NCBI GenBank assembly: GCA_007449985.2
Contig: VIIQ02000581.1
Location: forward strand, 1,008,868-1,072,867
Source of the DNA: Desmodesmus armatus
Taxonomy: Eukaryota; Chlorophyta; Chlorophyceae; Sphaeropleales; Scenedesmaceae
Reading direction: 5' to 3'
Length of the DNA stretch: 64,000 bases
In this document: piece after piece, positions 7,100 through 62,394 of the stretch
Layout of the letters: each line of letters opens with the position of its first letter
How positions within the stretch are numbered: position 1 is the first letter of the stretch
Made by a program: the position numbers and the translations under genes
Notes under the pieces: generated by a model
The model's input: the letters and a program-made list of their open reading frames with translations, nothing else
Databases searched by the model: none
Told to the model about the DNA's origin: nothing

Positions 7100-7345
7100 G
7101 TGACCTCTGGTGAACAGCGCTGGCTATTGTTGGACAGCCTGTGTGACAGCGGTGACACCCCAGGATGCATTTTTTGTTGTGTTTCTAATCGTGGGCGAAA
7201 GCACCCAAGTTGCAGCAAATCCTGAGCTTTTGCAGGGAATTTACACAAACAAACAGGGTGTCTGACATGTGGTGAACAGCGCTGGCTATTCTTGCAGCCT
7301 GTGTGACAGCAGTGACTCACCCACGGGTGCATTTTTTGTGTTGAG
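7100..7345. repeat. Direct repeat of about 85 bp, two copies
   Basis: Copies at about 7100-7180 and 7262-7345 share GGTGAACAGCGCTGGCTATT, then CAGCCTGTGTGACAGC, then a segment ending GGTGCATTTTTTGT or a close variant. They are separated by about 80 bases and are roughly 80-85% alike by eye. A weaker series of related GTGTTGGCT-containing pieces lies just upstream (6870-7090). No open frame spans them. Confidence 0.65.
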
Positions 7346-23093: not shown

Positions 23094-26000
23094 TTATGCG
23101 TTTGCTGTCGCGGGTGCCAGCATCCTGTCCTTCACTGCAGTCACGATGGCCCCCCTGTTGGCGTTCACCCAGCGCACACGCTTGGCGTAGCTGTCAGCAC
23201 GAGTGGTGAGGCTCTCAATGCCGTCCTCCTTGGCAAGCGCACTGCAGGCAGCCAGAAACAACAAAACATGTTCTTTGTAAGGTGGTGGTGTGGGTCAATA
23301 AAACGAGCTCAGTGCATGCATGTGTGCGAAGCGCTGTGCATTACGGACCTGTTCACACCGCAGGAGAAGCTATAGCACAACAACGGCACCACCTGGCGCA
23401 CTTTACGAGGGTACCAAGCCCATGTATGTGCTGCGCACCTCTCCCTCCAAGATCAGAAACATGGTCATCACAAGGCTGTGATCACCTCACTTGCATCTGC
23501 ACTGTGGCGATTTGCCACACTGTGCTAGCCTACTCTACAGTGTGAGCCAGGTGCTGCACACACCCACCCTGGCGGTGCCGTCGGATGCACATTGTCTTAC
23601 TGTCGTGCCCACAACAATGTCGCTGGCATAACATTGCCCCTTCCCCCCCCCCCCCCCACACACACACATACAGACACACAAGCTTGTCTGCTCACCGCCC
23701 CGTGAAGTAGATGACGTTGCTGAAGATGCGCAGGTTGATGAGGTCAGGCAGGATCTCCATCTCAGCACTGCTCAGCTCCCCATGCTTGGCATAGCCCGAC
23801 AGGAAGTCGGTGATGAGGGACAGAGGGTCATCCTCACCAACATACTGCAGGGGACACACACGGCAGGCAGACACACTACTGAAGTTACACAGGAGAAGGG
23901 GGCTGGTTCCTGTTGTTGCATCTAATCGGGGACCCAACTCCCCACTGCTGATGAGGAAGAGAGAGTCCTCCTCACCAACGTACTGCAGGGCACAGACACG
24001 GCACACAGACACACTACCCACATTACACAGGGATTCCCTGGTGGCGTCCAGATGGGGCACCACACCTAATCACTGCTTGTGAGAGCAAAGCTAAGAGGCT
24101 GTTTGGTAAGTCATAGCAGAGCGACTGTGCTTTAAACGTCTACGAAACTAGGCTGGGGTGCAGCGCAGGCACCCAATGTTGGCTGTACTGCGACCCAATC
24201 TTGTAGCAACCAAAAACAGGGAGCAGCAACGCAGATGTACACAAGAGGGTTGCGTGCCTACCTTGCTGAGAGCCACTGCCAGCTCCATCACCCGCCAATC
24301 ACGGGCACAGAACTCAAAGTCAAGCAGCCTGCAGGGAAGTGCGAAAGAGAAGGAACGGGAATGCTGGGTCAAAAACAATCACCCACATACATGCACCACG
24401 CCTAAAACCATTGCATAAAGTGCATTGACCAGCCCATTCAGACACTCCCAAGGCGGCGTCCGCATGTACAGCAGGACGGATCCCTGCTCTACTTCAGGGA
24501 GCCAGCCGCTGCTCGCAAAGCCTGAGTGAAGCCATGGGGCAAGTGAAGAACATGACGCATTGTTCAGCCATCACTCACCCGCTGACGCTGTCGCCTGACT
24601 CCGTTGACATGACCATCACGTTGACATGACCATCTCATTGCTAGGATTCATCAGGCAATGTGGGCGGGGGGGGGGGGGGGGCAGGGGGGAGGGGGGGGGG
24701 GGGGGGGCAGGGGGGGGGGGGGGACGGCAGCGACTCACCCGCTGACGCTGTCGCCTGACTCTGTTGACATGACCATCACGTTGTCGTAGTGCAGGTCGCC
24801 GTGGATGATCTGCATCGGCAGGCCCAGCTGCTGGTAGGACTCCAGCTTGGGCTCAATCGCACGGATCTGATCCACCAGGTAGTCCATTGACTCACGGCAC
24901 ACCTACAGGCAGCATCAGAAATTGCAAGGTGCCACAGGGTTGGTGACCCGGCATGAGCTGTGCTTGAAAACCCTCGCCAGGGTGATGACGTGGCGATGTC
25001 GGTGGGGGGGGGGGGGGGGCGGGGGAAGAGTTTGTGCTGGCAGCAATGTGTGTCGACAGAGAGACTGCATGCGTGCACATGCATGCTGGCTAGCAGTCAT
25101 CGGACAAGGATAGTCGGATGTGGGTGTGAGTGTGTGTGTGTGGGGGGGGGGGGATCTGGAAGTAAAGCCAAGGTGTAGGAAGGGTGGCCATGCACTGATC
25201 TGCTCCTGCCGCACCGTGCGTCAGACGCGTGGCTCCATTTCTCAACACACCACCGCCAATGAACCCCCTGCGCACCTGCAAGGCTGGGTTGGTGGCTGCA
25301 TCCTCGTAGAACTTTTCCTTGTTGATGGCGTGGTGCACATCAAACACCTGGAAGTACGGTGGGATGGGTATCACCCTGTCACCCAGGTCCACCTTGGCCA
25401 TGGCTTGGCACAACTCCCCGGTGGCACGACCAACCTCCTCTGGGCTGGTGGTCTTGGCAAGTTCACCTATAATGACGTAAGGGCAGCAGCATAAGGACAT
25501 CAGCCTCTATCAGGTTTTGAATCAGGTTTGAATTTGAATTTGAATATTGTCTTGTGCCATGGCTTGGCACAGCTCCCCAGTGGCACGACCAACCTCCTCA
25601 GGGGCTGGTGGTCTTGGCAAGTTCACCTACCAGGTGGTCACAGGCAGCAGCACACCTGCTTGAGACTCTACTGTAACAAACAAGATTGTTGAAGCACAAT
25701 TTGCACTCGTCTGCTGCTGTTCAGCTGGGTGAAAGGTTGGCGTGGACTTGAGTGTTCTGCAGAAAGCTGCCACACTGCCAGGCCTGACACGGTTCCGTGG
25801 AGGGTCTTGCGTGCTGGTTCGTATGCAAAATCCCTCAACCAATAAAATTGCGCAATGACCAGCCCATGTGCTGCAAGGAGCACAGCAACACCAGCTGCTG
25901 ACAGAACAAATTCTGTATAAGAATGCCAAATCATCCTTGCCAATACCAGTCAGTCTCACCTGGGATGATCTCAAAGACACACGCAGCTGCTCCGTTGCTC

Positions 26001-27297
26001 AGCACCACGTATGGTGCGCCTGTGTTGAGGGCAGGCAGTGCTGTTGGCACCTTGAAGCTCAGCTCCTGCTTTGCAAGCTGCGCCAGGATTGCATGCTCTG
26101 TGGCCACCTGCATGGTACATCAGAGCATTGCCAGGGTCATCAGAGCAAAGCCAGGGGAAGCGGTGCGGCGGCAGGGTGAACGTCAGCGATCAGCCACCCA
26201 AAGAAACTTTCATCAGAGCAAAGCCAGTGGATTTTGGGGCGGGGGGGGGGGGGGAGCGCAGGCAGTGCTGTCGCGCCTTGAAGCTCAGCTCCTGCTGCGC
26301 CAGGATTGCGTGCTCTGTGGCCACGTGTGTCATCAGAGCATAGCCAGGGGCAACGGTGCGGCCACAGGGGGGATGTTTGCCAGTAGACACCTCCAAGAAA
26401 GGGGACTTGGGATGAGGGGTGGGGGGGGGGGGGGGTACGCGCGCGGGGGGGGGGGGGGGTGTTAGCCGGTGGTTACTGTACAGAGTAGAGTAACCGTCAG
26501 CGACCCGCCGCCTCCAAACGGGTATTGGGGGGGGGGGGGGGGCTGCGTGATCCGATGGTCACTGTATAGTGCAGGAGTGCCCAACACCTCAGCTAAATGC
26601 TGGGTGGGTGGACCATCCTGCTGCCCGGCAATGCTGCTGGCAGCACCTGCTGGAGCCTCCCCAAACTAGGCATGCGAGGATGCTGGCCTGTGTGCAGCTG
26701 CGGATGCAGTTGGCCACAGCCTGCGGTGGTGCCTGTGAAGAGCTGTAGGTTAGCTACTGCTTTGTGAGGCAACAACAACATGTATAACTCTCATAGTTAC
26801 TGGCTGCGCACCTTTTCTGTCTTGTTTCCGTTGTTGTAGATGCGCAGGATGTACCTGTGGCCATCTGCTGTATTGACGTACTGCACAATGTTGTTCACGC
26901 CGCCTGTGGTAGGTGCTGTGCTGGCCTGCTGTTCAGGCCTGAAGAAGAAACTGAGCGCCTCGTCACGTAGGTCGTCCTCTACTGTGTGCTGGCCAGTAGG
27001 AGGGGCTGTGGCGGAAACCTGCAGTGGTGAATTGGCAGTGAATTGCAATTAGCAAAGGGGCACTGTGTGACAGAAGTGAGGGTCAGGAACCTATATGTTT
27101 AAAGCGACTGATGGAGAGCGTGTCAGTGCAACCTGGTAGAAGAAGGAGTTTGCACTCACACCACACCAGCTGCTGCTGTGCACCAGGCGCTGCTGCTACT
27201 GCCGCACCTTGACCAGCTGGCGCGCCAAGCGCGCATTAGCAACAGCACGACCACGTGCAACGCCAGTGAGCCGGCCTGCAGACTTGTGGGCCAGCAT
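23094..27297 (-). CDS. APH/choline-kinase-fold phosphotransferase, homoserine kinase II-like (8 exons)
   Basis: Exons: 27297-27208, 27018-26812, 26107-25960, 25466-25276, 24902-24739, 24328-24262, 23844-23696, 23241-23094 (1164 nt, 387 aa); all junctions hold frame. Residues 1-30 (Arg/Ala/Leu/Lys-rich, no acids) look like an organelle transit peptide. The kinase core shows GGVNNIVQYV and YILRIYNNG for nucleotide binding, Brenner's motif HGDLHYDN (246-253, catalytic Asp248) and LLDFEF with metal-binding Asp270. This is the aminoglycoside phosphotransferase superfamily, which also contains choline, ethanolamine, hydroxylysine and homoserine type II kinases. The substrate cannot be told from sequence. 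Homoserine-kinase-II-like is my best guess because of the long VATEHAIL...LPALNTG N-lobe. The gene is peppered with partial copies of its own exons (see repeats). The C-terminus is Ala-rich. Confidence 0.75.
23950..24031. repeat. Decoy copy of kinase exon 7 acceptor edge
   Basis: Roughly 80 bases repeat the start of exon 7 plus its upstream intron (functional copy 23811-23892): GATGAGG, CCTCACCAAC, TACTGCAGGG and ACACGGCA occur in the same order. The copy lies inside the intron upstream of exon 7 and keeps a usable CTGCAG acceptor. It would read YVGEEDSLF instead of YVGEDDPLS. Confidence 0.75.
24573..24622. repeat. Decoy copy of kinase exon 5 donor edge
   Basis: About 50 bases match 24733-24782 with a single mismatch, covering the final codons of exon 5 (MSTESGDSVSG) and the GTGAGT donor. 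Long poly(G) tracts (24663-24723) separate the decoy from the real exon end. Confidence 0.8.
24661..24723. repeat. Poly(G) tract cluster in kinase intron 5
   Basis: About 60 bases are almost entirely G on the plus strand (C in the minus-strand transcript), broken by a few A and C bases. Similar but shorter G or C runs of 10-18 occur in introns throughout the window. Confidence 0.9.
25557..25629. repeat. Decoy copy of kinase exon 4 acceptor edge
   Basis: About 73 bases repeat 25398-25469, including the acceptor and the first codons (GELAKTTSP). The copy carries one extra base after CCTCCTC, so it would run into a stop if spliced in. It lies in intron 3, upstream of the real exon in transcript order, next to an AATTTG simple repeat (about 25517-25545). 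Confidence 0.85.
26118..26350. repeat. Decoy copy of kinase exon 3 plus CATCAGAGCA repeats
   Basis: At about 26258-26325 the first part of exon 3 with its acceptor is repeated, minus nine bases (functional copy 26030-26107). Around it the element CATCAGAGCAAAGCCAGG or a close variant occurs four times (near 26118, 26139, 26213 and 26331), so the whole block is an irregular tandem expansion of an exon-intron junction. Confidence 0.75.
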
Positions 27298-27640
27298 ACT
27301 GGAAACGCCTGTGATTGATGTGCTGGGTGGAGAGGACAGGGGGTGACGGGATGCGGTAGGGAGCAGCGAGAGAAGTCACCACACGGTGTAGAATACATCA
27401 GAGTTGAGCAAGAACGTGTCCTTCGCACCCTGGCAGGTTTACGTACGCTTGACTAACCGCAGCCGTTGCCCTGGACTTTGGATCAGACCGGTTCATTGGG
27501 CGGCGCACCAACACAGTGAGGTAGTTCTTGATCGGTCTTCTTTTGCTTCCGTTCAGTCTCAGCCGCAAGCTGGACACAACGTGCCAGCACAGCTCAGATC
27601 TGCTACTGCTCAGAGGTGCATTAGTGCAGCGCCTGCAGTG

Positions 27641-28221
27641 ATGCAATGTACTACTGGCCCCAGCATGTTGGAAAGGGTCATTACACGTTCAGTATCGTTG
27701 TCAGAAGCTGCACCACGCTGCATACGCTGCCACTGCAGCAAGCACAGCCCCAGCACCGCCAGGCTTGACGCAAAGGGGCTCTCCTACCTGGGAGACTCTG
27801 TCTGGACTGTAAGTATCCAATTCCAAAGGTTTCAGGTCTGTTGTACTGGGGTACCGTAGCGCCTGCCGTCTGGCTGGAACCGAGAACATGTGCTGTCTGT
27901 GCTGCAGCTGTGTGTGAGGCGTCACTTCTTTGCACCCCCCAAGCACTGGCGGACCTACCAAAGCTTGGTGCAGCCATATGTGACAGCAGAGGGGCAGGTG
28001 AGGGCGGATTACTTTGTGTTCTTTGCTGCGTGAGCAGGTGGTCACTGGACACGAATGTAGTGCAGAGTCCAACTGCTGTGGGCACAAGACGGCAGCAGTT
28101 GACACAGCCAAAAAAGTGATACTTACGTGACAACAGTCCACACATACTGCTCATGTGGGGGCGGCATGCACATGTCTGCCTACCTAGGCTCTTGGCTAGG
28201 CTCTTGGCAGATCATTTGGTG

Positions 28222-28252
<31 letters not shown>

Positions 28253-29314
28253 CCACCACGCTACCTTGTGCTGCCGCCTAATTGCCCTGCCGTGCCCTGC
28301 ACCTGTTGTGTCGTCCCCCCCCCCCCTCACACCCACTTTCTTGTTGTGCCCCTTCGCGTGTTGGATTGTGCTGCAGTCTGTGCACATTTCATATCCATGC
28401 CTTGCTGCCTCCAGTATGCCCCTCACTTGTTTGCCTGCTGCCTGCTGGCTGCCATGTATGATGCCCTGCTGTACAAACTTCCATTAAAGTTGTCCTGCTG
28501 CCTGCTGCACACACTCCACAAGGGTTGTCCTGTTGTCTGCTGCACACACTTCAAAAGCTTTGTCCTGCTGCCTACTGTGCACACTTCACATGCTGTCTCC
28601 TGGTTCCTGCAGGCTGCCCTGTATGATGCCCTGCTATCTGGTGCAGCTGGTGTCACTGCAGCAGAGCAGCAGTTGTTACAAGCCGTGCGTGCTCAGGTGT
28701 CCAACTGGCGGCTGCGCAAGCGGTTTGACACGGCGGCTGCCGCTGAAGCATACAGGAAGGCTACAGCTTTCGAGGCACTGGTGAGCATAGCCGACCAGCT
28801 ATGCAGTAGGGAGTCACAATCACCGTATTTGGCATTGAAAAGCTGTGCAACCCAGAAGGGAGCTACGGGCTCATGATGTTCAACAAGTTGTCGTGCACAT
28901 GTGACAACCAATCACAGGCAGCGCAAAGAATTATAAGTTGATATCATAGATATTTCAAGTAAAATTCTATAATATTGTTTTTTATTGATTAAATTTTTAG
29001 TATGAATCAATATTATTTCATTACAGGCAGTGCAAAGGGGATGCATCCTGTCCTGCAGCATTGCACCACCTGTGTCAAGCTCGCAACCACCTGGTAGTGC
29101 TGGTGTGGCATACAGAGATCCCAGCATGCAGTTGGCTTGCTTCTCACAGCATGGCGTGGCGCACTCTCTCCTTGACAACAGCTGTTCTGTCCTGCAGGTT
29201 GGTCACCTCCACCTGCATGACCCCAGCCGCCTGATGGTCATTACAGAGGCTTTGATGGAAGGCAGCCAGCACAGCCCAGCAGGCCCCGCAGCAAGCCCAA
29301 CACAGTCCATGTGA
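27641..29314 (+). CDS. Mini-ribonuclease III, probably plastid (4 exons)
   Basis: Exons: 27641-27808, 27908-27997, 28613-28780, 29198-29314 (543 nt, 180 aa). Residues 1-40 are rich in Ser, Arg and Cys with no recognised domain, and fit a plastid transit peptide. LSYLGDSVW (47-55) corresponds to the RNase III signature LAYLGDAV with catalytic Asp52. It is followed by LCVRRHFF, then KATAFEALVGHLHLHD, the second signature, with Glu140. There is no double-stranded-RNA-binding domain, and the length fits the MrnC/mini-III family. Bacterial MrnC matures 23S rRNA; plant plastid homologues act in rRNA maturation and intron turnover. The start is the only in-frame ATG ahead of the domain. The third intron contains a 94-base AT-rich insert, and the last exon is partly repeated downstream. 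The upstream kinase gene is divergent, with 343 bases between the two starts. Confidence 0.82.
28222..28249. repeat. CAG microsatellite in mini-RNase III intron 2
   Basis: Eight or nine consecutive CAG units followed by AACAGCC, inside the intron between exons 2 and 3. Not translated in the proposed model. Confidence 0.85.
28914..29037. mobile_element. AT-rich insert flanked by 15-bp direct repeats
   Basis: ACAGGCAGCGCAAAG at 28914-28928 and ACAGGCAGTGCAAAG at 29023-29037 differ at one base and bracket 94 bases that are strikingly A+T-rich, unlike anything nearby. The flanking repeats look like a target-site duplication. The insert has no coding capacity and no clear terminal inverted repeats. 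It could be a short non-autonomous element or a patch of organelle DNA captured at a break. Confidence 0.5.
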
Positions 29315-29488
29315 GGGCAGTCAACACTCCAGCGGCTCAGATCGGAGCAGCAAAACCAGGTTCGATGGCAGGAAGTGAGGCCCCAGTGAAAGGCAGCCAG
29401 CAGGCCCCGCAGCAACCCCCAATGCAGCCCTTTTGAGTCCATCAACAGTCCAGCAGCCAAGATCGAAGCAGAGAAACCAGGTTGATGG
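29261..29488. repeat. Tandem duplication of the mini-RNase III gene end
   Basis: The last coding bases, stop codon and early 3' UTR (29261-29371) are repeated imperfectly at about 29392-29488. Shared blocks are GGCAGCCAG, CAGGCCCCGCAGCAA, GTCAACA or ATCAACA, and GATCG.AGCAG.AAACCAGG. Only the first copy is in frame with the gene. Confidence 0.7.
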
Positions 29489-30703
29489 CCCCGATGGAAG
29501 ACAGCCGGGTTGCTCCAGCAGGTCCTGAGGCAAGTCACACCCAACTGCGCAGGTGTGAGCATAAGCAGCGCAGTGTGGCCCAGCAGCGGCAGAGCTAGGA
29601 TACAACAATTTCTGGATGGCTGCCTGGGCATGCCCCCCCCCCTGCCCCCATCTTGCCTGCAGCGCCGTGTACAGCCGGCATGCAGGAAGGTGGGGTACTG
29701 GACTTGGGCAGCAGCAGCGTTACTTCACGACAACCAAAATTCACGGGCCCTTCAGCATCAGCAACCTAATGGAGCCTCCACTAGCGGCTAGTCCGCTCCC
29801 AAGGTTGCGCCGGCTGGCCTCTGCGACTGAAGGGTTGGGACGGAGGGCGAATTCTTTGCGGGAGCTGGAACAGGTGCGCTATTGCAGGTCATTGTGGTCC
29901 AGCCATACTCTGCCAGTAGCAGCAGCAGCAGCAGGCATCATAACGCTCCTTACAGGCTTCCATGTCTTGTCTACTCAAGGTTGAACCAAGTTGCAGGTTG
30001 TCATCCATTCAGGGATGGCTCTTGCAGGGTGCTGCATAGCTTTGTGGGGCATGGAATGTTTCTGCTGCAGATTGTGCATGCACATGGCTGGTGCTTTGCT
30101 GACACCTTACATGTACCTTTTCTTCACGTGCACTTTTTCTCTGTTTGGTCAGTCACCCATCCACTGTGCTGTGCTGCTTCTTGTGCCAATGTCGCAGGCC
30201 TTTTGACTGTGCCAATGTTGCTGGCCAGACAGTGGTCACAGCCCGTCAAGTCGTCGCCCATCTGTGCATCACTGGAGGCCAGTTGATGGACATCAGAGCA
30301 GCTGTTTGAGCTGTTTCCGAAATAATTGAGCAGGCGGTGCTGTAATGAGCCCAAACTGCCAGCCTGGCACAGCCAACCCAGAGGGTGGTGGCTCAGTGCA
30401 TTGCATGTCTGAAGCAGGTACCAGTGATGTGTAAGGGAGCCTAACCAAGCATCGCAGCCATCCAAACATCGCCTGCTGGCAGCTGAGCTGTCTTGAACAA
30501 TCTACTTCAACCGTCAACAACTGCTAGATGTAAACTTTCAACGTGAGATGCATGACTGTGTTTGTCCGGGGTCACTGAACGAGTTTGGCGTATGTCTCAC
30601 ACACTGTGAGATAGGGCTGTCCATCTGATCCCATCCGAACGTGCCAAAGCTTGGATCCCACCCTGATCGCTTCGTGTGGGCACCAAAGCTCACGTCTCAA
30701 ACA
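29489..30703. other. Spacer between mini-RNase III and cysteine synthase genes
   Basis: No gene recognised. It would include the mini-RNase III 3' UTR and the cysteine synthase promoter and 5' UTR. Open frames on both strands are short and featureless. Confidence 0.4.
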
Positions 30704-33700
30704 ATGCAGCAGATGAAGCACCAACAGGGGCCTGGGGTTCGCTGGTGCAGCAGTCTCAAAGTTGGTTCCAGCTACTGCTGTCATGTTGCTCCACACCGCC
30801 CTCGTTCCAGCAGGCCACTCACCAGCAGCATAGCATCAGCAGCTTCCGTGGAGCAGCAAATCAGCAGCGACGTAGACCACTTGCAGTTGATCGCTCCTGA
30901 TGCTACACAGCTCATAGGCAATACCCCTATGGTGAGCAAGGGCCCAAAGAGAGCCTGCAACTGTTGGCAGGTGTGAGCAAGGCAGCAGCAGACCGTTAAC
31001 ACAGTTTCTCAACCTGCTGCAGGTGTACTTGAATAGTGTAACAAAGCAGGGCTGCTATGCACGCATAGCTTGCAAGCTGGAGCTCATGCAACCATGCTGT
31101 AGGTGAGGTGGATTTGCAAATGATTTGGGCCCTGTGGTTGGGTGGTGAAGCTGTTTGTTTGACCATGCAAAGCTTGCGATTGGCAAGTTGTAACACCTGT
31201 CGGCTGCAAAACAACATGTGAATGGCATGTGGGACAGTGGTGCCAGGGACCCTCCAAGCCCTGCATGGCTACTGCAGCCCGCAGCAGAGGGGTGGTTGAC
31301 ACACCATACCCTCTTTGACCACCTGACAGCAGCAGCTGCTCTGCCGTCCTGAGGCTGGGTACATTGATGCCTGGCATGTATGCGTGTACCCCCCCCCCCC
31401 CAACCCCCAACCGACCCCACCCCACCCCACCCCACCCCACCCCACCCCACCCCCCGACCCTGTTGTGCCCACTGCCTGCAGTGTGAAGGACCGTATTGCC
31501 TACAGCATGATCTCAGCAGCAGAGGAGCAAGGACTCATCACACCTGGCAAGACCCTGCTGGTGAGCTTGGGTGGTAGTGCCACAGCTGTTCATGGTGCCC
31601 CAGGGGGGGGGGGGTGCAACAGCTGTTTGTGCCCCCCCCCCTCTCCCCGGGGGAGGTGTAGTGGGACCTCATGTATGAGCCTGGGGAAGCCATTTGCTAC
31701 AGCAGCAGCACCAGCAGACAGGAGCAGTACCAGCAGCAGCAGTACAGGGTGGGGGGGGTGGGGCAGCTGGGGCTTCGTTCAAGATAACCTCAAGGCAGCA
31801 GCAGAAGCAGCGCGTCCGATTCAATGCGCGGCTTGCCTGTCAGGAATGAGTGAGGGCGAATGAGTGAGGGTGAATGTGGCGGGGGTGGGCAGCTGGAGCG
31901 CCACACCAAGCACCAGCGAGCAGCTGCAGCAGAAGCAGAGGGGTCATTTAATGCAGGCTGCTGCATGTCACTCAGCAGTTGGCGGGGTGGGGTGGGGTGG
32001 GGTGGGGTGGGGGGTCAAGATGGCAGTACGTCTTGACTGAACTTTTGTGCCTGCAGCATGCTGTTATAATAGATACAATGAAAATGCAAGCACGAACCTT
32101 TAACCCTGACAGTTATCATCGCACCACTTCGTGCTGTAATATCCTGTAATGCCCCGTACCGTCCTGCACTGTTTTCAATTCTCCGCAGGTTGAGCCTACC
32201 AGTGGCAACACTGGTGTTGGTCTTGCAATTGTGTCTTACTCACTGTATCATTCCGTAGTGCACAATCTACTGCACTGCTTCACTTGGTATGTGATGCCGC
32301 AGGTTGAGCCTACCAGTGGCAACACTGGTGTTGGTCTAGCGTTTGTTGCTGCTGCCAAGGGCTACCAGCTGGTGCTCACTATGCCTGACACTATGAGCAT
32401 TGAGCGGCGGGTGCTGCTCAGGGCACTGGGGGCACAGCTGGTGCTCACAGAGGGGCGCAAGGTAAACGCTTTTTGGGGCTCTTGATGCTGCCTGTCGTGG
32501 GGGATGTTGCCCGGAAGTTGTTAATGCATAGGGCGACAATGCTGAAAGGCCTGGTCGACCATGCCGCAGCCCCGCAGGGCAAAGGCCTGGTCTGCCTCCT
32601 GCACCATAGACAGGATTGCCAAGGCTTGTCGTGTACAAGTGCCTATGTTTCCCATGAATGTGTATCCTACATCAAGACATACTGAGTGATGGGTCACAGA
32701 TGTGTTCATGCTTTGCTCCAGCAGCATGTGACTCCATGACATGGTGTGCTGTCATGTCATGTCATGTTTGTGTAATATGTGATGCTGTGTGCAGGGAATG
32801 ACTGGTGCCATCCGCAAGGCTGAGGAGCTCGTAGCCACGCGGCCGGACGCCTACATGCTGCAGCAGTTTGAAAACCCCGCCAACCCGGCCATCCACTACC
32901 AGACCACAGGCCCTGAGATATGGAGGGACTCTGCAGGGCAGGTGGACATCCTGGTAGCTGGAGTGGGCACTGGAGGCACCATCACAGGTATGTGAATGGC
33001 TCGGGCCGCGGTTGGGACTTTGGTTCTCTGGCCTATTCGGTAATCCGACACCACAACCTGCATTGTCCGTGCAATTTCTTCGGGTGAATGGTGTCAGTGA
33101 ATGTTTGCACATAACTGCGTGGCGTCAGGTCCACTTGTTACTGCCTTGCACTCAGCAAATGCCTTGCACTCAGCAAATGTTTCCTCCTTCTACCTGCCCT
33201 TCCTTTCCTGTCTGTCTGCCTGCCTGCCAGGTGCTGGTCGCTACCTGAAGGAGCAGAAGCCCTCAGTGCAGCTGGTGGCAGTTGAGCCAGCTGAGAGCCC
33301 AGTGCTGTCGGGGGCAAACCTGGCTACCACCAGATACAGGGCATCGGGGCGGGCTTTGTACCAAAGGTGAGAGGGGGGGGCACGATGTGTGGGGGTGGGA
33401 GTGAGGGGTTCGGAGGGAAGTCTGTTGGGGTGTAGGGCAGTGGGGATGGGGGTGGGGGTTGAAGGGGAGGGCATGGATGGGTGGGGAGGGGAAGGGTGGG
33501 GGGGGGACTGCAGGATGGGGCCAGGTGACTATCCATGACAGGAAGTGCCCATTCAACTTCTTTGAAACGGATTGATTCTGGTCTTGTTCTTCATTCTAAG
33601 CTGGTCAATGCTGCCCCCCCCCCCCATTTACAGGTCCTTGACGTGAATATGTTGGATGAGGTGTTGAAGGTGAGCAGCAAGGAGGCTGTGGAGATGGCAC

Positions 33701-33798
33701 GCCGCCTGGCACTGGAGGAGGGACTGCTCACAGGAATCAGCAGCGGTGAGCTTGACAGGGGGGGGGGGGTGTTGGAGGGGCCCAGAGGGTGTGTGTGT

Positions 33799-33829
<31 letters not shown>

Positions 33830-34694
33830 CAGGGCTCAGCGGGGAAACCCGACCCGGGGGAGGTGAGGGTTGCAGCAATGCTAGTGGGTAGGGGGGCGGG
33901 GAGGTGGGACTGCTCACAGGCATCAGCAGCGGTGAGCTGGAGAGGGGGGGGGGTACTGGAAGGGGCGGGGTGTTTATTGAGGGGGGGGGGGAGGGGGTGC
34001 AGAGAGGCTGGTAGGTGGGGGAGAAATGGCTCCTTGCAGGCATCAGCGGCAGTGAGTGACAGGGGGTGGCTGCTGCAAAACGGGGTTTGAACTTTGGGGG
34101 TGTGGGGGCGGGGGTCACAGGCACCAGCAGCAGTGAGCTGCTGGGGTGAGAGGGGGGGCCTGCTGGTTGGGGGCTGGATGCAGGGGTTGCGCGTTGTGGG
34201 GAAGGTCGCGCGGGTGTGTTTTTACAGGCAGGGTGCTACTCAAAAGCAGGCTATCAAGAGGCTTGGTGGCGTTACTTGGTGACGTTACTAGGTCGCCAGC
34301 TGCTGGAGAGGTGTAGAGGTTTGCGGACCTTTCCTGCATCTTTCAAGTCCAAGTCTGCATCACAGTGACTGTAGTAGTGCAATGAACCCACAGTTGGGCG
34401 ATTGCGGCTGAGCGCAGGTGGTCAGCTGTGGCGGATGCTCTGGTTTGACCTCTGTTCCCTGTTGTGTCTGTTGCATCCCACACCACACCAGGTGCTGCTG
34501 TGGCTGCTGCGCTGCGCATCGCCCGCCGCGTCGAAAACAAGGACAAGCTGATCGTGACTGTCCTGCCCAGCTTTGGCGAGCGCTACCTGAGTACGGTGCT
34601 CTTCAACACGCTGTGGAGCTTCGATGCCGACGCTGAGAAGAGCATGCCACGGTGGAACACCAGCGTGCGGCCAAAGAGCGATACGGAGCTTTGA
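30704..34694 (+). CDS. OASTL: Cysteine synthase / O-acetylserine(thiol)lyase, with one apparent frame break (8 exons)
   Basis: Exons: 30704-30931, 31023-31102, 31482-31560, 32303-32461, 32795-32987, 33231-33366, 33634-33745, 34492-34694. They total 1190 nt, one base short of 397 codons. The enzyme condenses O-acetylserine and sulfide to cysteine with pyridoxal phosphate. Visible motifs: IGNTPM; CSVKDRI with the PLP lysine near 105; [10 protein letters not shown] (phosphate and substrate loop); [21 protein letters not shown]. Residues 1-60 are Ser/Arg/His-rich and suggest a plastid transit peptide. In exon 6, VLSG is followed by a shift: the expected [18 protein letters not shown] lies in the next frame, as if one G were missing from the run 33310-33314. 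A sequence error is the simplest explanation, a recent pseudogene the other. The C-terminal part of about 65 residues after SSGAA is normal for the family. Copies of exon edges lie in introns 3 and 7. Confidence 0.9.
31388..32012. repeat. Complementary CCCCA and GGGGT arrays flanking exon 3
   Basis: A CCCCA array ends intron 2 at about 31415-31452, and a GGGGT array lies in intron 3 at about 31984-32012. The two are reverse complements and bracket the 79-nt exon 3 (31482-31560) of the cysteine synthase gene. Longer C and G runs occur beside both. In RNA they could pair and loop out the exon. Confidence 0.8.
32183..32337. repeat. In-frame duplication of cysteine synthase exon 4 acceptor edge
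   Basis: The 41 bases at 32183-32223 are identical to 32297-32337; they contain CCGCAG and the codons for [12 protein letters not shown]. The distance is 114 bases, and the 38 codons between are open in frame. Use of the upstream acceptor would therefore insert 38 residues, including a second copy of the TSGNTG loop, without breaking the protein. I annotate the downstream copy as the exon because the remaining conserved sequence follows it directly. Confidence 0.9.
33719..34141. repeat. Repeated exon 7 donor edge in cysteine synthase intron 7
   Basis: The end of exon 7 and its donor (CAGCAGCGGTGAGCT, 33719-33750) recur three times downstream in degenerating form, at about 33907-33940, 34028-34056 and 34111-34141, each followed by G-rich sequence. 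Spacing is about 190, 120 and 85 bases. Each copy keeps a GTGAG donor. Confidence 0.8.
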
Positions 34695-53378: not shown

Positions 53379-56300
53379 TCACCACTGGCTGCCGTTTGGG
53401 TGTGGCGGCGTGTCTTCCACGCGTACAAATATGAACGTGCCTTGTGGGCCCCGTCCTATAAGCATCTCCTCGTCCAGGTATGTCAGCAGGTAGCTGGCGG
53501 CTGCTCCTGAGCCGCGCACCACCTGCTGCGCACTGCGGAAGGGGAAGCTCAGCTTGAACTGTGGAGGCAGCAAGATGGGGGGGGGGGGGGAGCAAGGGAG
53601 GTAGGGGTGTAATGCAGGGAGAGAGGTAACTCAGCTTGAAGCATTTCGGAACCAACAGCAAGGCAGCAAGGGGAGGGGGGGGGCAGGTTTCAGTTTGCAA
53701 CGGGGACCTGCCGATATGTGGGTTGAACAGGGGCGAGAGGGGGCGACAACACGGAAGAAGCCCGGGGAAGGCAGGGGCGTGTCTGCACTTGCATTGTCTC
53801 CAATAGCCACATCCTCACCCAGCCCCCTCACCCCAATACGAGTTTGGTGAACAGCCATCCCCAGCACACGCTCAGCTCAAGTGCGCCCTGGCATGAAACA
53901 TAGTGCTGGCAGCAGCTGGCAGCCTTCAATGACACAGCCTGCTCTCAAGCGCTGCCCCCCCCTCCCTGTCCGCAACCTCCCTCAATAGTCATAAGCCACA
54001 CGTGTGTTTGATAGTACCAGTGACACTCGCAGCACAATTATGATTACCCCCCCCCCTCTCAGCCCGGCGAATGTTCCATATTTGTGGGATGAACTTACAC
54101 ACGCGGCAGCGGGTGTGGTACACCCTTAGGCTCCAAGATCGGCCCTGATCAGCTGAGAGTGCTGCAAGATGTACAATGTGACAGCAGCTTGGGAACTTGC
54201 GGAGGCCCCTGGCTCATCAAGTGGCCTTATAACATGCATGATAAGCTTGGTAATGCCTAACGCCAGCGGATGGGCTGCTTGGGGCTTTGGCTGACTCGCA
54301 CTTGTAATTACATCGAATTTGCGTTTTCAGGTGCTTTGCGTAACACGCGCTATTCAAGCTGGACGCGCACTCGTAAATGATCAACACCAATACATAACGT
54401 TTGAAGGGCTCAGCTGCCCGCGAAGGGTCCTTGGTAGTGCACAGTTGCAATTGGCCGTGACTGTGAAATTGGCAGGTTTTCGAAGAGGGCTCATGGGGCC
54501 CTGTTAATGCACAATATGCTAGCCTATAACCATTAGAAGCTTTGAGTATGGTCCAGGTCTGGCCTGCGTGCCCCAGGAGGGCACACTTGTAATTGGCCGA
54601 AATTGGGTACCACAAATACCCAACCCAGGGGGGGTTGGGCCCCCCCAGCCCGGCAGCCCCTGCTCCCCCCCCCCGAAGGTACGTGCTCACCTCCTTCAGC
54701 GCCAGCAGCTGCTATTGATCGATGCCACCGTGCCAGGGGCAGCAGTGCAGAGATCAAGTCCATTCCCCAATGAACCAGATCCCTCTTCCCTTGCGCCTCT
54801 TTGCCTGCCCCTCCCATCCCCCCCCCCCCCCAATCTGTCCTGCTTACCTCCTTCAATGCAAGCAGCAGCTGCTGATTGATGGTGCCGCATGGCAGCAGCC
54901 CCCCCCCCCCCCTCCCCGCCCCCGGCTCCAAACACACCTTCGTGTGCTCACCCCCCCAAGCACGTGCTCACCTCCTTCAACGCCAGCAGCAGCTGTTGGT
55001 TGATGGTGCCGCGTGGCAGCAGTGCAGGGGCCAGCAGCGCCTCCAGGCCAGGGCTGATCCTCCCTCATCCCCCCCCCCCCCCCCCCCCACACACACACGC
55101 CCTGCTCACCTCCTTCAGCGCCAGCAGCAGCTATTGATTGATGGCACCGCGTGGCAGCAGTACAGCAGCCAACTCCCTTCCTCTCAAATCGCCCCTCCCA
55201 AACGGGGTGAACTCCTGTCGCCCCCCAAACATGCACTCACCTCCTTCAGCGCCAGCAGCAGCTGTTGGTTGATGCTGCCGCGTGGCAGCAGTGCAGGGGC
55301 CAGCAGCGCCTCCAGGCCAGGGCTGATCCTCCCTCATCTCCCCCCCCCCCACACACACACACGCCCTGCTCACCTCCTTCAGCGCCAGCAGCAGCTATTG
55401 ATTGATGGCACCGCGTGGCAGCAGTACAGCAGCCAACTCCCTTCCTCTCAAATCGCCCCTCCCAAACGGGGTGAACTCCTGTCGCCCCCCAAACATGCAC
55501 TCACCTCCTTCAGCGCCAGCAGCAGCTGTTGGTTGATGCTGCCGCGTGGCAGCAGTGCAGGGGCCAGCAGCGTCTCCAGACCAGGGCTGATCCTGAGCTG
55601 TCCCACCTGCGCCTCATTGAATATCAAACGGATGCGGCGAGGGCTCGCGACATCGTAGCTGCAACACAATGCAATAAGGAACACAACATGGAAGGGAAGC
55701 GGGATAAATGACGGAATCAAGGGGGAAATATCAAGGTTTGTGCGCAAACAGCATAAGGTAGGGAAAGTCAAAATCCAAGATTCGGGGCAAACAGGGGCGA
55801 ATGCAAGGACAGATACTGACTGGGAGCGAAGCCCGTGGAGCGGCAAAGGGTGTGTGAGTGCGGGGAGACTGTAACCCAACGATTGCGCAGGGGTGTGCAC
55901 AGGCATCCAAGCCTGGTTTCCCCCTATCAAGCCCAGATCAACCTATGTTGCATGCCTGCCAGGCGTGGCAAGCAAGCTACCCGCGCGTTGCTTCCACCGT
56001 GCAGCCCTGTTTCACCTCCAGCGGGAGGGCTATGGTGAAGTACGTTGATGTTCTACCCCATACTCTAGGTGCGCTGCCCCCCGTCCTATGTTTGCAAAAG
56101 CTGATGATGCGCTAACTGCCATGCAAGCTGGGATGACCTCTTCAAGACTCCCAACACAACCCCAAGATTGTGACAGTGCTGTCGCTGCTAGCACAACTGA
56201 AATTCTGCAAGTATTAACCAAGCCCCACCTTGCTTCCACCGTGAATGTGCAGCCCTTGTCCTGCTTCAGCAGGAAGGGTACACTGAACTCAATGATGTTC

Positions 56301-58115
56301 TAACCCATGGCCCAAAAAATTACAGTGTGCGCTGGTGCCTGCAAAAGCTAGTGCTGCTCCAGCTGTCAATAGCATTGAGATCCCACCCATCAAACTTCCC
56401 TATGTTTATCTCCCAGACTTTGACAACAGCCGTCAATTGAAACAGAACCAACCCCACCTTGCTTCCACCGTGAATGTGCAGCCCTTGTCCTGCTCCAGCA
56501 GGAAGGGTACACTGAACTCAATGATGTTCTCAACGATGCCCCGCTCAACACTGGAAAAGCGCTGGTACACACCACCTACCCGCACAGGGGCGGGCAGGGG
56601 CCAAAGTCCGGCAAGTCCAGGCCCACAATGGGGGTCTGTGTGTGTGGTGGATGAACGCGCCGGGGGGGGGGGGGGGGGGGGGGAGGAGGGGGGGGGGGGG
56701 GGGGGGGGTGGGTGAGTGGGTGGGGGTGGGGGTGGGGGGAACAGGCATGACAACAAAGAATGGTTGTGTGCATGAAGGCAGTCGAGAGCATACCCTTATT
56801 TGTGCTGCTGCTGCTGCTGTTGAAGATGCACAAACAGCTGCACAGGATGTTGCCAGAACCCCCCCTCCCTCTCCCCACCTCGCCGGGCTGGCTCCTCATG
56901 GACCGCCCCCCCCCCCCCAACCACCCCTGTGCTGCCTTAGTGCAGCTGATAACAGGCTTCTCCCCCCCCCTCCCCCATGTCCCCCATGCCCCCTGCTGCG
57001 CCCTGTGCCCACCCACAATGTCGAGTGCGTCAGTGTACTTCCCCCCCCCTCCCCCAACCCCCCCCCCCCCCCCCGGGAAACATTTCCCCGGCTGCTCCCC
57101 CTGTCCACCCACCACGTCGAGTGCGTCTGTGTACTGCAGCAGCCACTTTCCCTCCAGCAGGCTGTAGTCCAGCTCAGGGGGGGACAGACCCTCAACTGAC
57201 ACCTGCGGGGGGGGGGGGGGGGAGGCAATGACGGTGGTGAAAGTGATGATGGAAGGGAGCGGATGGGTGGGGGCAGGGTAGGGTAGCGGGGGAGGACAAG
57301 GAAGGGGGGGGGAGGGGGGGTGGAGCAGGTCCCTGAGGCACATGGGGTGTGACTGTCTCGACAGTTGCTGACGGTCCTTCAGTGGTTGAGTGATGGGTGG
57401 TTCAAGAAACGGTTACTGGATGGCACAGCAATATGGAATGCTGCAATGATGTGCACCACCCCATGTGGTGGGACGGGACTGGACTGGAGCGTGTGCTACA
57501 AGCAGAACACCTGGGATGACTGCCCCCCCCCCCCAGCCCCTCTCAAACACACTTCATCCTCTGTTGCACCCCTCTCCTTCCTGCCGCTGCGGTGGCTGCT
57601 GCTGCTGCTGCTGTAGAGATAGCTCTGTAGAGATAGCTCTGTAGAGTGGCCCACACTCAGCGATTGCACACCAGGCATGTCTGTGGCTGATGCTCCCAAG
57701 CACATACATGTGGGGGTCTTGCCTGCCCCCCCCCCTCTCCACGACAGCAGCTGCTGCATGCCTGAGCCACGCTGTGGTTTTGCAAAGACCTCCCAGACAT
57801 TGGTGTCCCCCCCCCCCCAAAAGAACTAGTGGTACTCCAAGCCCCTCCAACACCCCGCACCCGTCCCTCTGCATGCACCTGTGCTTCCTCTATCTGCCCT
57901 CGAAGCTGCTTGGTTGTGTTGCTGCCACGTTTCGTGCCCGATATCCAGCTCAACAGCTCGTCCTTTCTCTCCCTCGCGGTTGCTGTGTCTGGACCACTCG
58001 TTGTACTACTGCTACTGCTGCCTGTTGCTACTGCTGATGACACCACACACGAACGGAGCTTCCGGTGCAATCTGTAACATGCACCACATGCTTTTGAGTG
58101 ACTAGCGAGCGCCAT
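53379..58115 (-). CDS. PAP/fibrillin plastid lipid-associated protein (5 exons)
   Basis: Exons: 58115-57879, 57202-57113, 56635-56458, 55658-55505, 53558-53379 (839 nt, about 279 aa). Residues 1-45 are a plastid transit peptide type. RKDELLSWISGTKRG is the usual fibrillin opening, LLEGKWLLQYT (94-104) the core strand, then RVGGVYQRFS, VENIIEFSVPFLLE, SPRRIRLIFNEA, LRISPGLETLLAPALLPRG and TYLDEEMLIGRGPQGTFIFV, all in family order. Fibrillins bind lipids in plastoglobules and thylakoids. Exon 3 is one base short with the best donor for exon 2: the frame leading into VRVGGVYQRF needs an extra C near 56600, or use of a weaker donor at 57108 that restores frame. Exon 4 and its donor are repeated six times in the downstream intron; exons 2 and 3 also have decoys. 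Introns are full of G/C runs. Confidence 0.85.
54691..55658. repeat. Seven-copy tandem array of fibrillin exon 4 end plus donor
   Basis: The functional exon is 55505-55658. Copies of its end, each with a GTGAG-type or GTAAG-type donor on the minus strand, begin at 54691, 54848, 54972, 55110, 55241 and 55374. Copies 3, 5 and the real exon form subtype A (plus-strand GTTGGTTGATG); copies 4 and 6 form subtype B (CTATTGATTGATGG). Same-type spacing is 264-269 bases, so the newest layer is a dimeric unit of about 264 bases. Subtype B has a stop in the frame of the exon. None of the decoys has the exon's upstream acceptor. Confidence 0.92.
55986..56535. repeat. Decoy copies of fibrillin exon 3 end
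   Basis: The end of exon 3 (56458-56535) is copied at 56229-56301 with about one mismatch in 73 bases, and again, more diverged, at about 55986-56058. The copies include the AAGGTGGGG donor. Unit length is about 230 bases, including intron sequence that starts TGCAAAAGCT. Confidence 0.85.
57004..57040. repeat. Decoy copy of fibrillin exon 2 end
   Basis: About 37 bases resemble 57103-57138, the end of exon 2 with codons YTDALD and the GTGGGTGG donor region; here the copy would read YTDALDIVGG. It lies in the downstream intron between long C runs. Confidence 0.75.
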
Positions 58116-59817: not shown

Positions 59818-62394
59818 TTAGAAGTTCTTCGTGCTCTTCACGTCGCCTGTGTTGGCAGTAGTCACAGCCTCACTGCAGTTGCAGAAGAAAACAAATCAGG
59901 CAGACAGGCAAGCAACATTGCAGTCAGAGGGCGAGCTTACACTGCAGCTGGTGTGCACCATCTGTGTTCTTTCTGTAACCGCTGGCAGCCTGCTACCTGC
60001 AAACCTCGCATTGTGTTTCTGACGGCTGCACCACAACCAACACCTCATTTTCTGCAGCGTACAACCACTCTTGAATGCCACCAGCACTTGTGTCAGGACG
60101 CTGGTCAGTGTTGGCAAGGCCTAAATCCATGGGGCAGTACTCACGGCAGCACGAGTGTCTTGCCAGCTGCGTTGATGAGTCGAATGTCCCAGGGCAGTGC
60201 AGGCAGGCGGCTGGCCTCCCACGCAGCACCAAACGCATTCCTCATAGGCCTCCAGGCATCAGTGCCAGCCTGCAGAGCAGCAAAATAAAGAAAATAAAGA
60301 GACGGCATGTTGTTGATATGTGAGAAACGGTCAGCACTTCACGCACGCAGCATTAAACTTTGAATGATGATCCCTTGTGGGCCGACAGGCATCAGTGCCA
60401 GCCTGCAAGCAGTCAGTTGCAGCAGCAGGAGAAGGCAACCCAAGACAGCAGGGGCAGGGCAGCATATTGTTGATGTGTTGGTCAGCCGCTGCGCAACCAT
60501 CCAGCACCAAAGCCAGCTCTCCTGAACAACCATCCAGCACCGAACCCAGCTCTTCCACCACTTCCTACTTATCCCAATCGTTATTTCTAAAGCGTCGGTG
60601 GCCAGTCAGGGCATCTCACCTTGGCGAGCTCCACCTTCTCCAGTGGTGACCCGTTGACGTTCTTGAACAGCATCCGCACCCAGCCACCCCCAGTGGCGCG
60701 GTAGGAGTCAACACGGGTGGTCACGCCACCAGCAAAGGCACAGGGCACCTGCAGGAAGGTGAAGACAGCGGCAATGCAAAAGACAAAAAGCAAAGCTTGA
60801 TGGCGACAGGTGTGGTTATTTGAGGGGAGGACTCAACCTACAGTCTTTTGCAGTGTACACCAAGGGGCCATGCTCTGGTGGGGGATTGACACACCGGGCG
60901 GGGGGGGGGGGCAGAGGGCGGGGGAAGGGGGGGGGGGAGGGTGCACCCCTCACGTGTGGGGTCCCCCCCCCTCCTCCCTCCCTTTACTATCCCGTTCAGT
61001 CTTGCAAGCACCCACCCACCCACCCACCTAGCAACACTGGATGACGCTGCATCCCAGGTTCAGAGGAGCCAAGCTGGCACTCGCCCCTCTCCCTTCCTCA
61101 CTCTGTCCGAGCCTCCCTCACCCCCCCCCTAGCTGGTTGATGCTGTCACCCACCCACCCACCCACCCACCACCTCCTAATACGAACTTGGTGCAGTGGCG
61201 ACCAAAGTCCCCCTCCCACCCACACACCCGGGTCCCACCCACATCACCCACCTCGCGGTACTGGATGGCAACGCGTCCCAGGTCTAGTGATGCCAGCTTA
61301 GCAAAAGGTGTCGCCATGAGGTTGACCTGGTTGGCCTCACACTCATCACAGTCATCAACCTGGACGGTCAGGCGGGTCTTGGGGTCATTGCAGGCCTTTG
61401 GGGGGGGGGGGGGGTGTGGGGGGGGGGCAGCAGTGGCAGGGAAAGGGGGGGGGGGTTAGCACAATGTCAGGTCATGCGGGCGTTGCACACATCATAATCA
61501 TATACTGTTGACAGTCATCAACAACCTGGACGGTCAGGCGAGTCTTGAGGTCGTTGCAGGCCTGTGGAACAGAAAGGAGGTAGGGCAGCAGGAAGACACG
61601 GTGAGGGTATGCACGAGTCAGACACTATTGAGGTGCAGGGATGGACGGAGGCAGGGTGGGTGAGAAGCGCACGTCTGGCGGGACTTGGGGTCATTGCAGG
61701 CCTGGGGGGGGGGATGTGGGTGGCGATGACGGATTGAGGGGTGGGGGTGGGGTGGTGGGGGGAGTGGGGGTGGGGTGGGGGTGGGGTGGGGGTAGGGGGG
61801 GGGAGGCAGGGCGAGGGAGGGGGCAAGGTGATGTGGCAGGGCATATTCTCACCTCATCCACACAGCGGACCTCCAGGCAGACCCCACAGCCTTTGAGGGC
61901 ATACTTGCTGAAGATGCTCTTGCTGAGTGACACACCAGCAAGGTTGAGCCCAGGGTGCTCAGCTGCAGTCAAGGCACCGTAGCCACAGGCCCCATTGGGC
62001 ACAGACGTTGCTGCAGCATCCTGGATTTGGCGGGAACATGCAGGAACAGGGTATCAAACAGCTTGTGAGCAGCAGCGAGTAAGTAGCAGCTGCAGCAACA
62101 CAGTAGCATCAACCCAGCATCTGGCGGGCAGCAGACATGTGATCTAGATTAAAGGTTGTTGAATGCGGTTTCACTGTGGTTAGTGCGAGCATTGAAGGCT
62201 TCTCGGAGCAGCAGCTGTCTTGCTGCCAGCAGATCTGTCAGACTTCAAAACTGCGGATGCGCAGCAGGGACTGTCTGGTGCTTGATTACCTCTCCGCTGA
62301 ACGTTGCGACTCCAGGCGTCCAATTTTGGGCCTGGGATTGGGCCACGGCAAGTCCTGCTGCAACCAACAGCACCAACGCTGTGCGGATTGCCAT
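59818..62394 (-). CDS. Expansin (6 exons)
   Basis: Exons: 62394-62290, 62020-61853, 61395-61252, 60748-60620, 60269-60145, 59872-59818 (726 nt, 241 aa), close to the usual length of about 250. The signal peptide is about residues 1-20 (ALVLLVAAGLAVA). NWTPGVATFSG and GACGYG (45-50) open the six-stranded double-psi barrel domain, which continues with paired cysteines (CGVCLEVRC, DDCDEC) and GRVAIQYREV. The C-terminal CBM63-type domain follows: VPCAFAGGVTTRV, WVRMLFKNVNG, DAWRPMRNAFGAAWE, and a short C-terminal strand. Expansins loosen cell walls without hydrolysis. The plant HFD motif is not obvious; the corresponding place reads NQVNL. The last acceptor was placed at 59873 because it alone gives a natural C-terminus (LPEAVTTANTGDVKSTKNF). 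Exon 3 has two partial decoys in intron 2. Confidence 0.88.
61511..61702. repeat. Decoy copies of expansin exon 3 acceptor edge
   Basis: The start of exon 3 with its acceptor (functional 61343-61400; codons ACNDPKTRLTVQV) is copied at about 61511-61563, with a good CTGTTCCACAG acceptor, and as a 28-base scrap at about 61675-61702. The first decoy reads ACNDLKTRLTVQVVDD and then diverges. Confidence 0.85.

What the first reader, a model, noticed from the sequence alone, without database searches (positions are those of the whole stretch)
23950..61702. Recurrent duplication of exon edges with their splice sites into neighbouring introns
At least six genes in this window (APH-fold kinase, mini-RNase III, cysteine synthase, ZIP, fibrillin, expansin) carry partial copies of one or more of their own exons. 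The copies nearly always include a splice donor or acceptor and stop within the exon, so they are decoy half-exons. They lie next to the real exon, often beside poly(G/C) or short simple repeats, and are mostly out of frame or lack the partner splice site. Two long genes (exportin-1, TDP2) show none. This looks like a genome-wide process, for example templated repair or replication slippage at exon-intron junctions, and I know of no standard name for it. It may create or buffer alternative splicing.
Basis: partly seen in the sequence, partly recalled or inferred. Interest (0 to 1): 0.85.

Follow-up and report, generated by a model that had tools for sequence, protein, structure and literature searches.

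The report
Decayed tandem duplications at exon edges
In a green-alga genome many introns hold a dead, partial copy of the neighbouring exon with its splice site; these look like remnants of ordinary short tandem duplications whose exon half stays recognisable longest, not the product of a process aimed at splice junctions.

Summary
The half-exon copies lie almost always on the intron side and carry the donor or acceptor. They are best explained as short tandem duplications (spacing 69-287 bp) of a segment running from inside an exon into the intron. In 23 of 33 scored pairs the "spacer" is itself homologous to its expected tandem partner. In those 23, divergence is 0.10 and 0.07 at codon positions 1 and 2, 0.18 at position 3 and 0.17 in the intron: about the 1:2:2 expected if the exon is constrained and its copy drifts. 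Whole repeat regions touch splice edges no more often than random relocation predicts (30 against 25; p = 0.24), so no junction-directed process is needed. Repeats inside exons keep multiples of 3; edge repeats do not. Introns with poly(G/C) runs carry copies far more often (13 of 51 against 9 of 321), a lead on the mutational cause. Comparable duplications across splice sites are published. Open: 10 of 33 spacers show no significant homology, including a 98%-identical kinase pair, and high-identity gapped pairs are still edge-rich (6 of 12 against 2.2 expected).

The parts
23811..24086 (-). Kinase exon 23696-23844, acceptor side: unit 23811-23948, tandem copy from 23949; alignment runs through the 138-bp unit
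   Evidence: spacer p=0.003; 101/140
24573..24783 (-). Kinase exon 24739-24902, donor side: real 24733-24783, copy 24573-24623 (50/51 identical), poly(G) spacer
   Evidence: spacer p=0.449: no tandem homology; unresolved
25393..25652 (-). Kinase exon 25276-25466, acceptor side: real 25393-25491, copy 25551-25652
   Evidence: (p=0.040)
26027..26352 (-). Kinase exon 25960-26107, acceptor side: real 26027-26139, copy 26254-26352; copy lacks 9 nt and its AG reads AC
   Evidence: (p=0.003)
28434..28635 (+). Exon 28613-28780, acceptor side: real 28599-28635, copy 28434-28470
   Evidence: spacer not scored (only 23 nt of exon)
29276..29489 (+). Exon 29198-29310, donor side: real 29276-29369, copy 29397-29489; donor GT of the copy reads TT
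   Evidence: (p=0.003)
32183..32346 (+). Cysteine synthase exon 32303-32461, acceptor side: copy 32183-32232, real 32297-32346
   Evidence: p=0.027; 78/108 over the unit
33714..34158 (+). Cysteine synthase exon 33678-33745, donor side: real 33714-33767, copy 33900-33953, weaker copies further on (33982-34115, 34096-34158)
   Evidence: (p=0.096, not significant)
45686..46003 (+). ZIP exon 45275-45753, donor side: real 45686-45759, copy 45931-46003 (GT reads CT), two older degraded copies near 45788-45819 and 45894-45927
   Evidence: inner copies score 30 and 35; null 99th percentile 22
54661..55594 (-). Fibrillin: array of several copies of the donor end of exon 55505-55658 separated by poly(C)
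   Evidence: two copies were called as exons by the gene finder; spacers not significant
56216..56542 (-). Fibrillin exon 56458-56575, donor side: real 56446-56542, copy 56216-56313 (94%)
   Evidence: (p=0.003)
56962..57135 (-). Fibrillin exon 57109-57202, donor side: copy 56962-57039, real 57058-57135
   Evidence: p=0.003
60247..60412 (-). Expansin exon 60145-60269, acceptor side: real 60247-60280, copy 60380-60412
   Evidence: (p=0.003)
61348..61722 (-). Expansin exon 61252-61359, acceptor side: 61348-61401 with copies 61511-61567 and 61673-61722, poly(G) between; by eye the true exon runs on to about 61396
   Evidence: 85/126; only 12 nt of the predicted exon, so not scored
61010..61295 (-). 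Same expansin exon, donor side: a weak second copy (real 61234-61295, copy 61010-61071, exon part 30/44)
   Evidence: spacer p=0.037
1437..1604 (+). TDP2 intron-only tandem duplication, period 83 (same process, no exon edge)
7098..7339 (.). Intergenic local duplication, spacing 162 (same process outside genes)

Best explanation
Short head-to-tail duplications (spacing 69-287 bp) arise along this genome, most often where introns carry poly(G/C) runs. When the unit starts inside an exon and ends in the adjacent intron, the result is a second splice site with a truncated exon piece on the intron side. Splicing can keep using the original site, so the insertion is tolerated; duplications wholly inside exons survive in multiples of 3. 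Afterwards the intron part of both copies drifts (two diverging lineages) while the exon piece drifts freely in one copy only, so the exon half stays recognisable after the rest has faded. That makes the copies look targeted to exon edges. Shown: tandem homology of 23 of 33 spacers, divergence ratios, frame filter, random-like placement of regions, poly(G/C) association in this sample. Inferred: the mutational step (template switching or error-prone end joining at G-rich barriers) and continued splicing at the original sites.
For: Spacer homologous to its tandem partner in 23 of 33 scored exon-edge pairs at p<0.05, 20 at p<0.01; control flanks 8 of 32 (one unit further out, where arrays can hold more copies) and 5 of 33 (far side of the exon). 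Unit alignments in the window, e.g. 101/140 for 23811-23948. Divergence in the 23 homologous pairs: codon positions 0.102/0.068/0.178, intron 0.169 excluding gaps; all 38 edges 0.105/0.089/0.180. Clusters pairing an exon interior with noncoding sequence: 2 against about 5 expected of 55, as contiguity demands. Placement 30 edge/8 intron/8 intergenic against 25/8.2/12.9, p=0.24. Exon-only repeats: 7 of 8 (start) and 8 of 8 (end) shifts multiples of 3; edge repeats 9 and 15 of 30. A young intermediate, L026:2014, is a 150-bp array at 96% containing 44 nt of exon end plus donor. Introns with G/C runs of 8 or more: 13 of 51 with copies against 9 of 321, odds ratio 11.9; 9.2 for introns of 200-700 bp.
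Against: 10 of 33 spacers show no significant tandem homology; three of these are in the fibrillin array, two of them on exon models later judged copies. Worst case: kinase pair 24573/24733 (98%), where so young a tandem copy should have a recognisable spacer. A first, linear-gap spacer test was weak: 8 of 41 pairs of all kinds and 4 of 19 exon/noncoding pairs at p<0.05. Among gapped clusters of at least 90% identity, 6 of 12 are edge-noncoding against 2.2 expected, and 3 more contain copies miscalled as exons; slow fading of the exon half explains this less well than it does for old pairs. 8 of 61 filtered exon hits do not reach an exon edge. Gene models are self-trained, without RNA; six predicted exons were removed by hand before the placement test. 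20 of 23 sampled stretches are on the window's contig. The poly(G/C) link by stretch, without the window, is weaker (5 of 124 against 6 of 446 edges, p=0.067; Spearman 0.14, p=0.52).
Confidence: 0.82

Rival explanations
1. Templated insertion: during break repair or a double template switch, a 30-100 bp piece of nearby sequence is copied into the intron without duplicating the spacer.
For: The 98% pair 24573/24733 with an unrelated poly(C)/filler spacer, and 10 of 33 spacers without significant homology. Proximal repair-mediated duplications are published (PMC2671141, passages).
Against: 23 of 33 spacers are homologous. Templates would often lie wholly inside an exon, yet only 2 of 55 clusters are of that kind against about 5 expected; 8 of 61 filtered exon hits are.
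Confidence: 0.1
2. A process directed at exon-intron junctions (for example linked to splicing or R-loops) preferentially duplicates exon edges.
For: By detectable arms, edge pairs are 21 of 55 against about 10 expected; among gapped clusters of at least 90% identity 6 of 12 against 2.2 (9 of 12 if three clusters with copies miscalled as exons are counted).
Against: Whole regions touch edges at the random rate, p=0.24; intron-only and intergenic duplications exist as well (8 and 8 clusters); choosing gapped pairs favours those whose intron part has faded.
Confidence: 0.07
3. Copies are functional alternative splice sites or exons kept by selection.
For: GT/AG kept in 31 of 33 copies against 27.6 expected from drift, possibly inflated because the alignment had to reach the edge. 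The gene finder called some copies as exons.
Against: Substitution pattern is that of a neutral copy against a constrained exon. Some copies lost the splice dinucleotide (26254 and 29397; 45931 by eye) or 9 nt of exon (26254).
Confidence: 0.04
4. Assembly artefact (haplotype junctions or collapsed reads).
For: Assembly in 831 contigs with many homopolymers.
Against: Pairs span a wide range of identity (68-98% among edge clusters) with codon-position structure and decayed intron parts; artefacts would be near-identical. No second long match to window 24000-26000 among the 40 candidates scored of 381.
Confidence: 0.02

Closest known systems
Tandem duplication crossing an intron-exon boundary, potato RdRp gene (PMC4974935; passages seen)
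   Same: Local tandem duplication of a segment spanning one intron-exon boundary; the same paper mentions an 83-bp duplication inside an intron
   Different: There a cryptic donor turned the copy into a new intron and inserted exon; here gene models keep the old splice pattern and the copy is intron sequence
Repair-mediated proximal duplications in primates (PMC2671141; passages seen)
   Same: Short local duplications (mean 162 bp) that can include partial exon plus intron; no sign of constraint on the two copied whole exons
   Different: Cases within 50 bp of their template were removed there to exclude tandem duplications; 4 of 824 donors were partial exon/intron; here 23 of 33 spacers are duplicated too
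Tandem duplications formed by polymerase-theta end joining in helq-1 worms; G-quadruplex-induced breaks (PMC8654963; start of abstract and passages seen)
   Same: Tandem duplications from about 100 bp up, and breaks at guanine runs, as a plausible source
   Different: Median about 1 kb, in worm mutants; the G-quadruplex events described there give deletions, and no breakpoint evidence is available here
Tandem exon duplication (recalled) and intron gain by duplication of AGGT (Rogers model as cited in PMC4974935)
   Same: Tandem copy of coding sequence near splice signals
   Different: Here copies are partial, single-edged and drifting, and the gene models show no new intron or exon from them

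Membership tests
Short tandem duplication | Copies head-to-tail, same orientation, close together | tested here: met
   Same-strand pairs, nearest copies 69-287 bp apart; the searches for local pairs looked at one strand only, so inverted copies were not counted there
Short tandem duplication | Whole unit duplicated, including the stretch between the visible arms | tested here: met
   Met for 23 of 33 scored pairs, not shown for 10
Short tandem duplication | Microhomology at the junction | not tested
   Only seen by eye (GGAGG in L013, and at 33714); no count made
Repair-mediated (templated) proximal duplication | Inserted copy separated from its template by unduplicated sequence | tested here: not met
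   Not met for 23 of 33; possible for the other 10, e.g. 24573/24733
Intron gain by tandem duplication | A new intron appears within former exon | tested here: inconclusive
   Copies lie inside introns of the predicted genes, but no relative with the intron absent or present was compared
Tandem exon duplication | Whole exon with both splice sites copied | tested here: not met
   37 of 38 edges reach one exon end only
Introner-type dispersed introns | Related copies spread through many genes | tested here: not met
   Tested for window 24000-26000 only: its exon-edge repeats find no match elsewhere; matches fall on a 105-bp dispersed repeat and on the poly(G) stretch

The most novel reading that the evidence does not exclude
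Poly(G/C) runs in introns of this alga make patchy hot spots of tandem duplication through G-quadruplex stalling and end joining, so that a sizeable share of introns with such a run (13 of 51 here; 4 of 25 outside the window) carries a duplicated splice site: a standing supply of raw material for splice-site shifts and intron lengthening.
Probability: 0.3. Interest if true: 0.5.

Novelty: new member of a known kind. Interest (0 to 1): 0.3.

Why it matters
It shows how one-sided decay can make an ordinary mutation look aimed at splice sites, and gives a simple test (divergence 1:2:2 across exon positions 1-2, position 3 and intron). It also points to poly(G/C) introns as possible duplication hot spots, and warns that half-exon copies mislead gene finders (6 predicted exons in this sample were judged to be such copies).

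Tried and rejected
Linear-gap spacer test: 8 of 41 pairs at p<0.05; replaced by affine local alignment with masked homopolymers after an indel beside the splice site at 32183/32297 was seen to break it; both results are reported. Anchored identity profile into the intron: 0.58-0.69 beyond the first 6 nt against a null of 0.51-0.58, blurred by indels. The idea that high-identity pairs prove non-tandem origin was dropped when L013 (GGGA spacer) and 32183/32297 proved tandem, but stays open for 24573/24733. Target-site duplication by a mobile element and inter-haplotype chimeras were considered; no dedicated test was made beyond and the codon-position pattern. Poly(G/C) in spacers: 8 of 25 against 1.0 expected from introns of the whole sample and 3.9 from introns of the same stretch. 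Rows dropped before counts: 165 exon hits, 61 after filters (complexity, E, identity, distance), 53 reaching an edge, 8 internal; 35 nearest copies on the intron side, 33 scored. In one search the printed '28 in unbiased stretches' wrongly includes the window; the split is 14 window, 14 stretches, 10 in L002-L008. In one search it is 14, 11 and 8. Six predicted exons judged to be copies were dropped by hand before the placement test. The 1.5-fold lifetime weight is my own estimate. Part of the output was cut from view; its counts come. On checking, the expansin entry was split in two, counts were mended and two confidences changed (0.85 to 0.82, and 0.05 to 0.07) because the high-identity gapped result is now weighed. 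Paper searches (listings seen) that gave nothing closer than the papers cited.
Full report
Setting. The window is the last 64 kb of a 1.07-Mb contig (C552) of an unnamed 115.8-Mb eukaryotic assembly in 831 contigs. A named close relative of the ZIP protein is from Scenedesmus sp. NREL 46B-D3 (64% identity over 87%), so it is probably a sphaeroplealean green alga (inference). A gene finder trained on the sequence itself recovered clean splice signals (AG|GTRAG, CTGCAG|G) with median intron about 273. Of six predicted proteins given to Pfam, all six match the expected families; exportin was not scanned. No RNA was available.

Observation. Self-comparison of the window shows many local direct repeats. 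With 23 further 10-kb stretches (20 on the same contig, 3 on others) there are 112 local pairs in 64 clusters in 294 kb; shuffled sequence gives none. Searching each exon against its flanking introns gave 165 hits; 61 passed the filters, 53 of them reach an exon edge and 8 do not. They fall on 38 exon edges: 14 in the window, 14 in the stretches, 10 in seven small loci that had been fetched for another repeat. Donor copies lie downstream in 30 of 33 hits and acceptor copies upstream in 17 of 19. The window is denser (14 of 175 edges against 11 of 592).

What the copies are. A tandem duplication predicts that the sequence between the two visible arms is duplicated as well. With affine local alignment and masked homopolymers this holds for 23 of 33 scored pairs (20 at p<0.01); flanks one unit further out give 8 of 32 and flanks on the far side of the exon 5 of 33. 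An earlier linear-gap test was much weaker (8 of 41 pairs of all kinds, 4 of 19 exon/noncoding pairs). Unit alignments, of varying strength and without a null in that call, were drawn for nine window repeats (23811, 25393, 26027, 29276, 32183, 33714, 56216, 60247, 61348); 23811, 26027 and 56216 run through most of the unit. Array L026:2014 (150-bp unit, 96%) is a young case carrying 44 nt of exon end, the donor and about 100 nt of intron. In ZIP the spacer holds two older copies.

How they evolve. Across 38 edges, exon-against-copy divergence by codon position is 0.105, 0.089 and 0.180. In the 23 pairs with homologous spacers it is 0.102, 0.068 and 0.178, with 0.169 in the intron part plus 130 gap columns. 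Positions 1 and 2 mostly record the copy's lineage only; position 3 and the intron record two lineages. The ratio near 1:2:2 is that of a dead copy beside a constrained exon. The intron figure comes from best local alignments of the significant pairs and so leans low. Splice dinucleotides are kept in 31 of 33 copies against 27.6 expected, no firm sign of selection either way.

Why exon edges. Relocating the observed repeat regions at random gives 25 edge, 8.2 intron-only and 12.9 intergenic against 30, 8 and 8 observed (p=0.24); with a 1.5-fold longer visible lifetime for edge pairs, my own estimate, the expectation is 29.5, 6.4 and 10.1 (p=0.66). Six predicted exons judged to be copies were removed by hand first; the other 9 of the 55 clusters are exon-only (8) or at a gene end (1). 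Counted by arms instead, edge pairs are 21 of 55 against about 10 expected, and exon-interior-to-noncoding pairs 2 against about 5: the first follows from one-sided decay, the second from contiguity. Against this, gapped clusters of at least 90% identity are still edge-rich: 6 of 12 against 2.2 expected, 9 of 12 if three clusters with miscalled copies are counted. Choosing gapped pairs favours those whose intron part has faded, but with so few cases a modest junction preference cannot be excluded. Exon-only repeats have shifts that are multiples of 3 (7 of 8 at the start, 8 of 8 at the end), edge repeats do not (9 and 15 of 30), so selection appears to remove frame-breaking duplications inside exons and to tolerate those that can be spliced out.

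Cause. Of 372 introns, those with G or C runs of 8 or more carry an edge copy in 13 of 51 cases against 9 of 321 without (odds ratio 11.9; window 5.9, L010 not significant, other stretches 10.5 with p=0.034; introns of 200-700 bp 9.2). Runs are about equally G and C on the coding strand (53 and 47). By stretch the link is strong with the window (19 of 226 against 6 of 518 edges) but not significant without it (5 of 124 against 6 of 446, p=0.067; Spearman p=0.52). Runs within the spacers themselves: 8 of 25 against 3.9 expected from the same stretches. Guanine runs that block replication, and tandem duplication by polymerase-theta end joining, are described in worms (PMC8654963, passages); applying this here is inference.

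Unexplained. Ten of 33 spacers lack significant homology. The kinase pair 24573/24733 is 50 of 51 identical but its 109-bp poly(C)-rich spacer is unrelated to the sequence beyond the copy; a templated insertion or a later replacement of the spacer is possible.

Known kinds. A tandem duplication crossing an intron-exon boundary is published for a potato gene (PMC4974935, passages), and short proximal duplications including partial exons for primates (PMC2671141, passages). The full-text searches made here (listings of the top rows seen) showed no description of such copies at scale in a green alga; that is a statement about those listings only.

Noticed in passing
window 25047-25154: A dispersed repeat of about 105 bp: about 40 of the 54 match rows (only 40 of 381 candidates scored). 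In 6 of 7 fetched loci it lies inside a predicted gene, and in none of the 7 does it overlap a predicted exon.
   Followed up: partly
window 21-32 kb and 53-64 kb; L010; L002, L003, L006: Poly(G/C) runs are patchy: 2 to 8 per kb of non-exonic DNA in these pieces, 0 in 11 of the 23 sampled stretches.
   Followed up: partly
window 9380-10823: Intergenic region with three related copies of 250-420 bp (82-88%).
   Followed up: no
window 41065-41124 and 51905-51963: Short inverted match 10.8 kb apart (78%).
   Followed up: no
window 54972-55040 and 55241-55309: Two fibrillin repeat copies were predicted as in-frame 69-nt exons repeating nearly the same 23 residues; RNA would tell whether they are used.
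   Followed up: no
L015:1808-3000: 318-bp (106-codon) repeat units at 99-100% identity inside a long predicted exon.
   Followed up: no
protein P0007 (relative of ZIP): An ORF from a relative (96% identical over 15% of the query) reads through the orthologous intron and shows no in-frame copy of the exon end, suggesting the window's copy is lineage-specific; only one of three frames is visible.
   Followed up: partly
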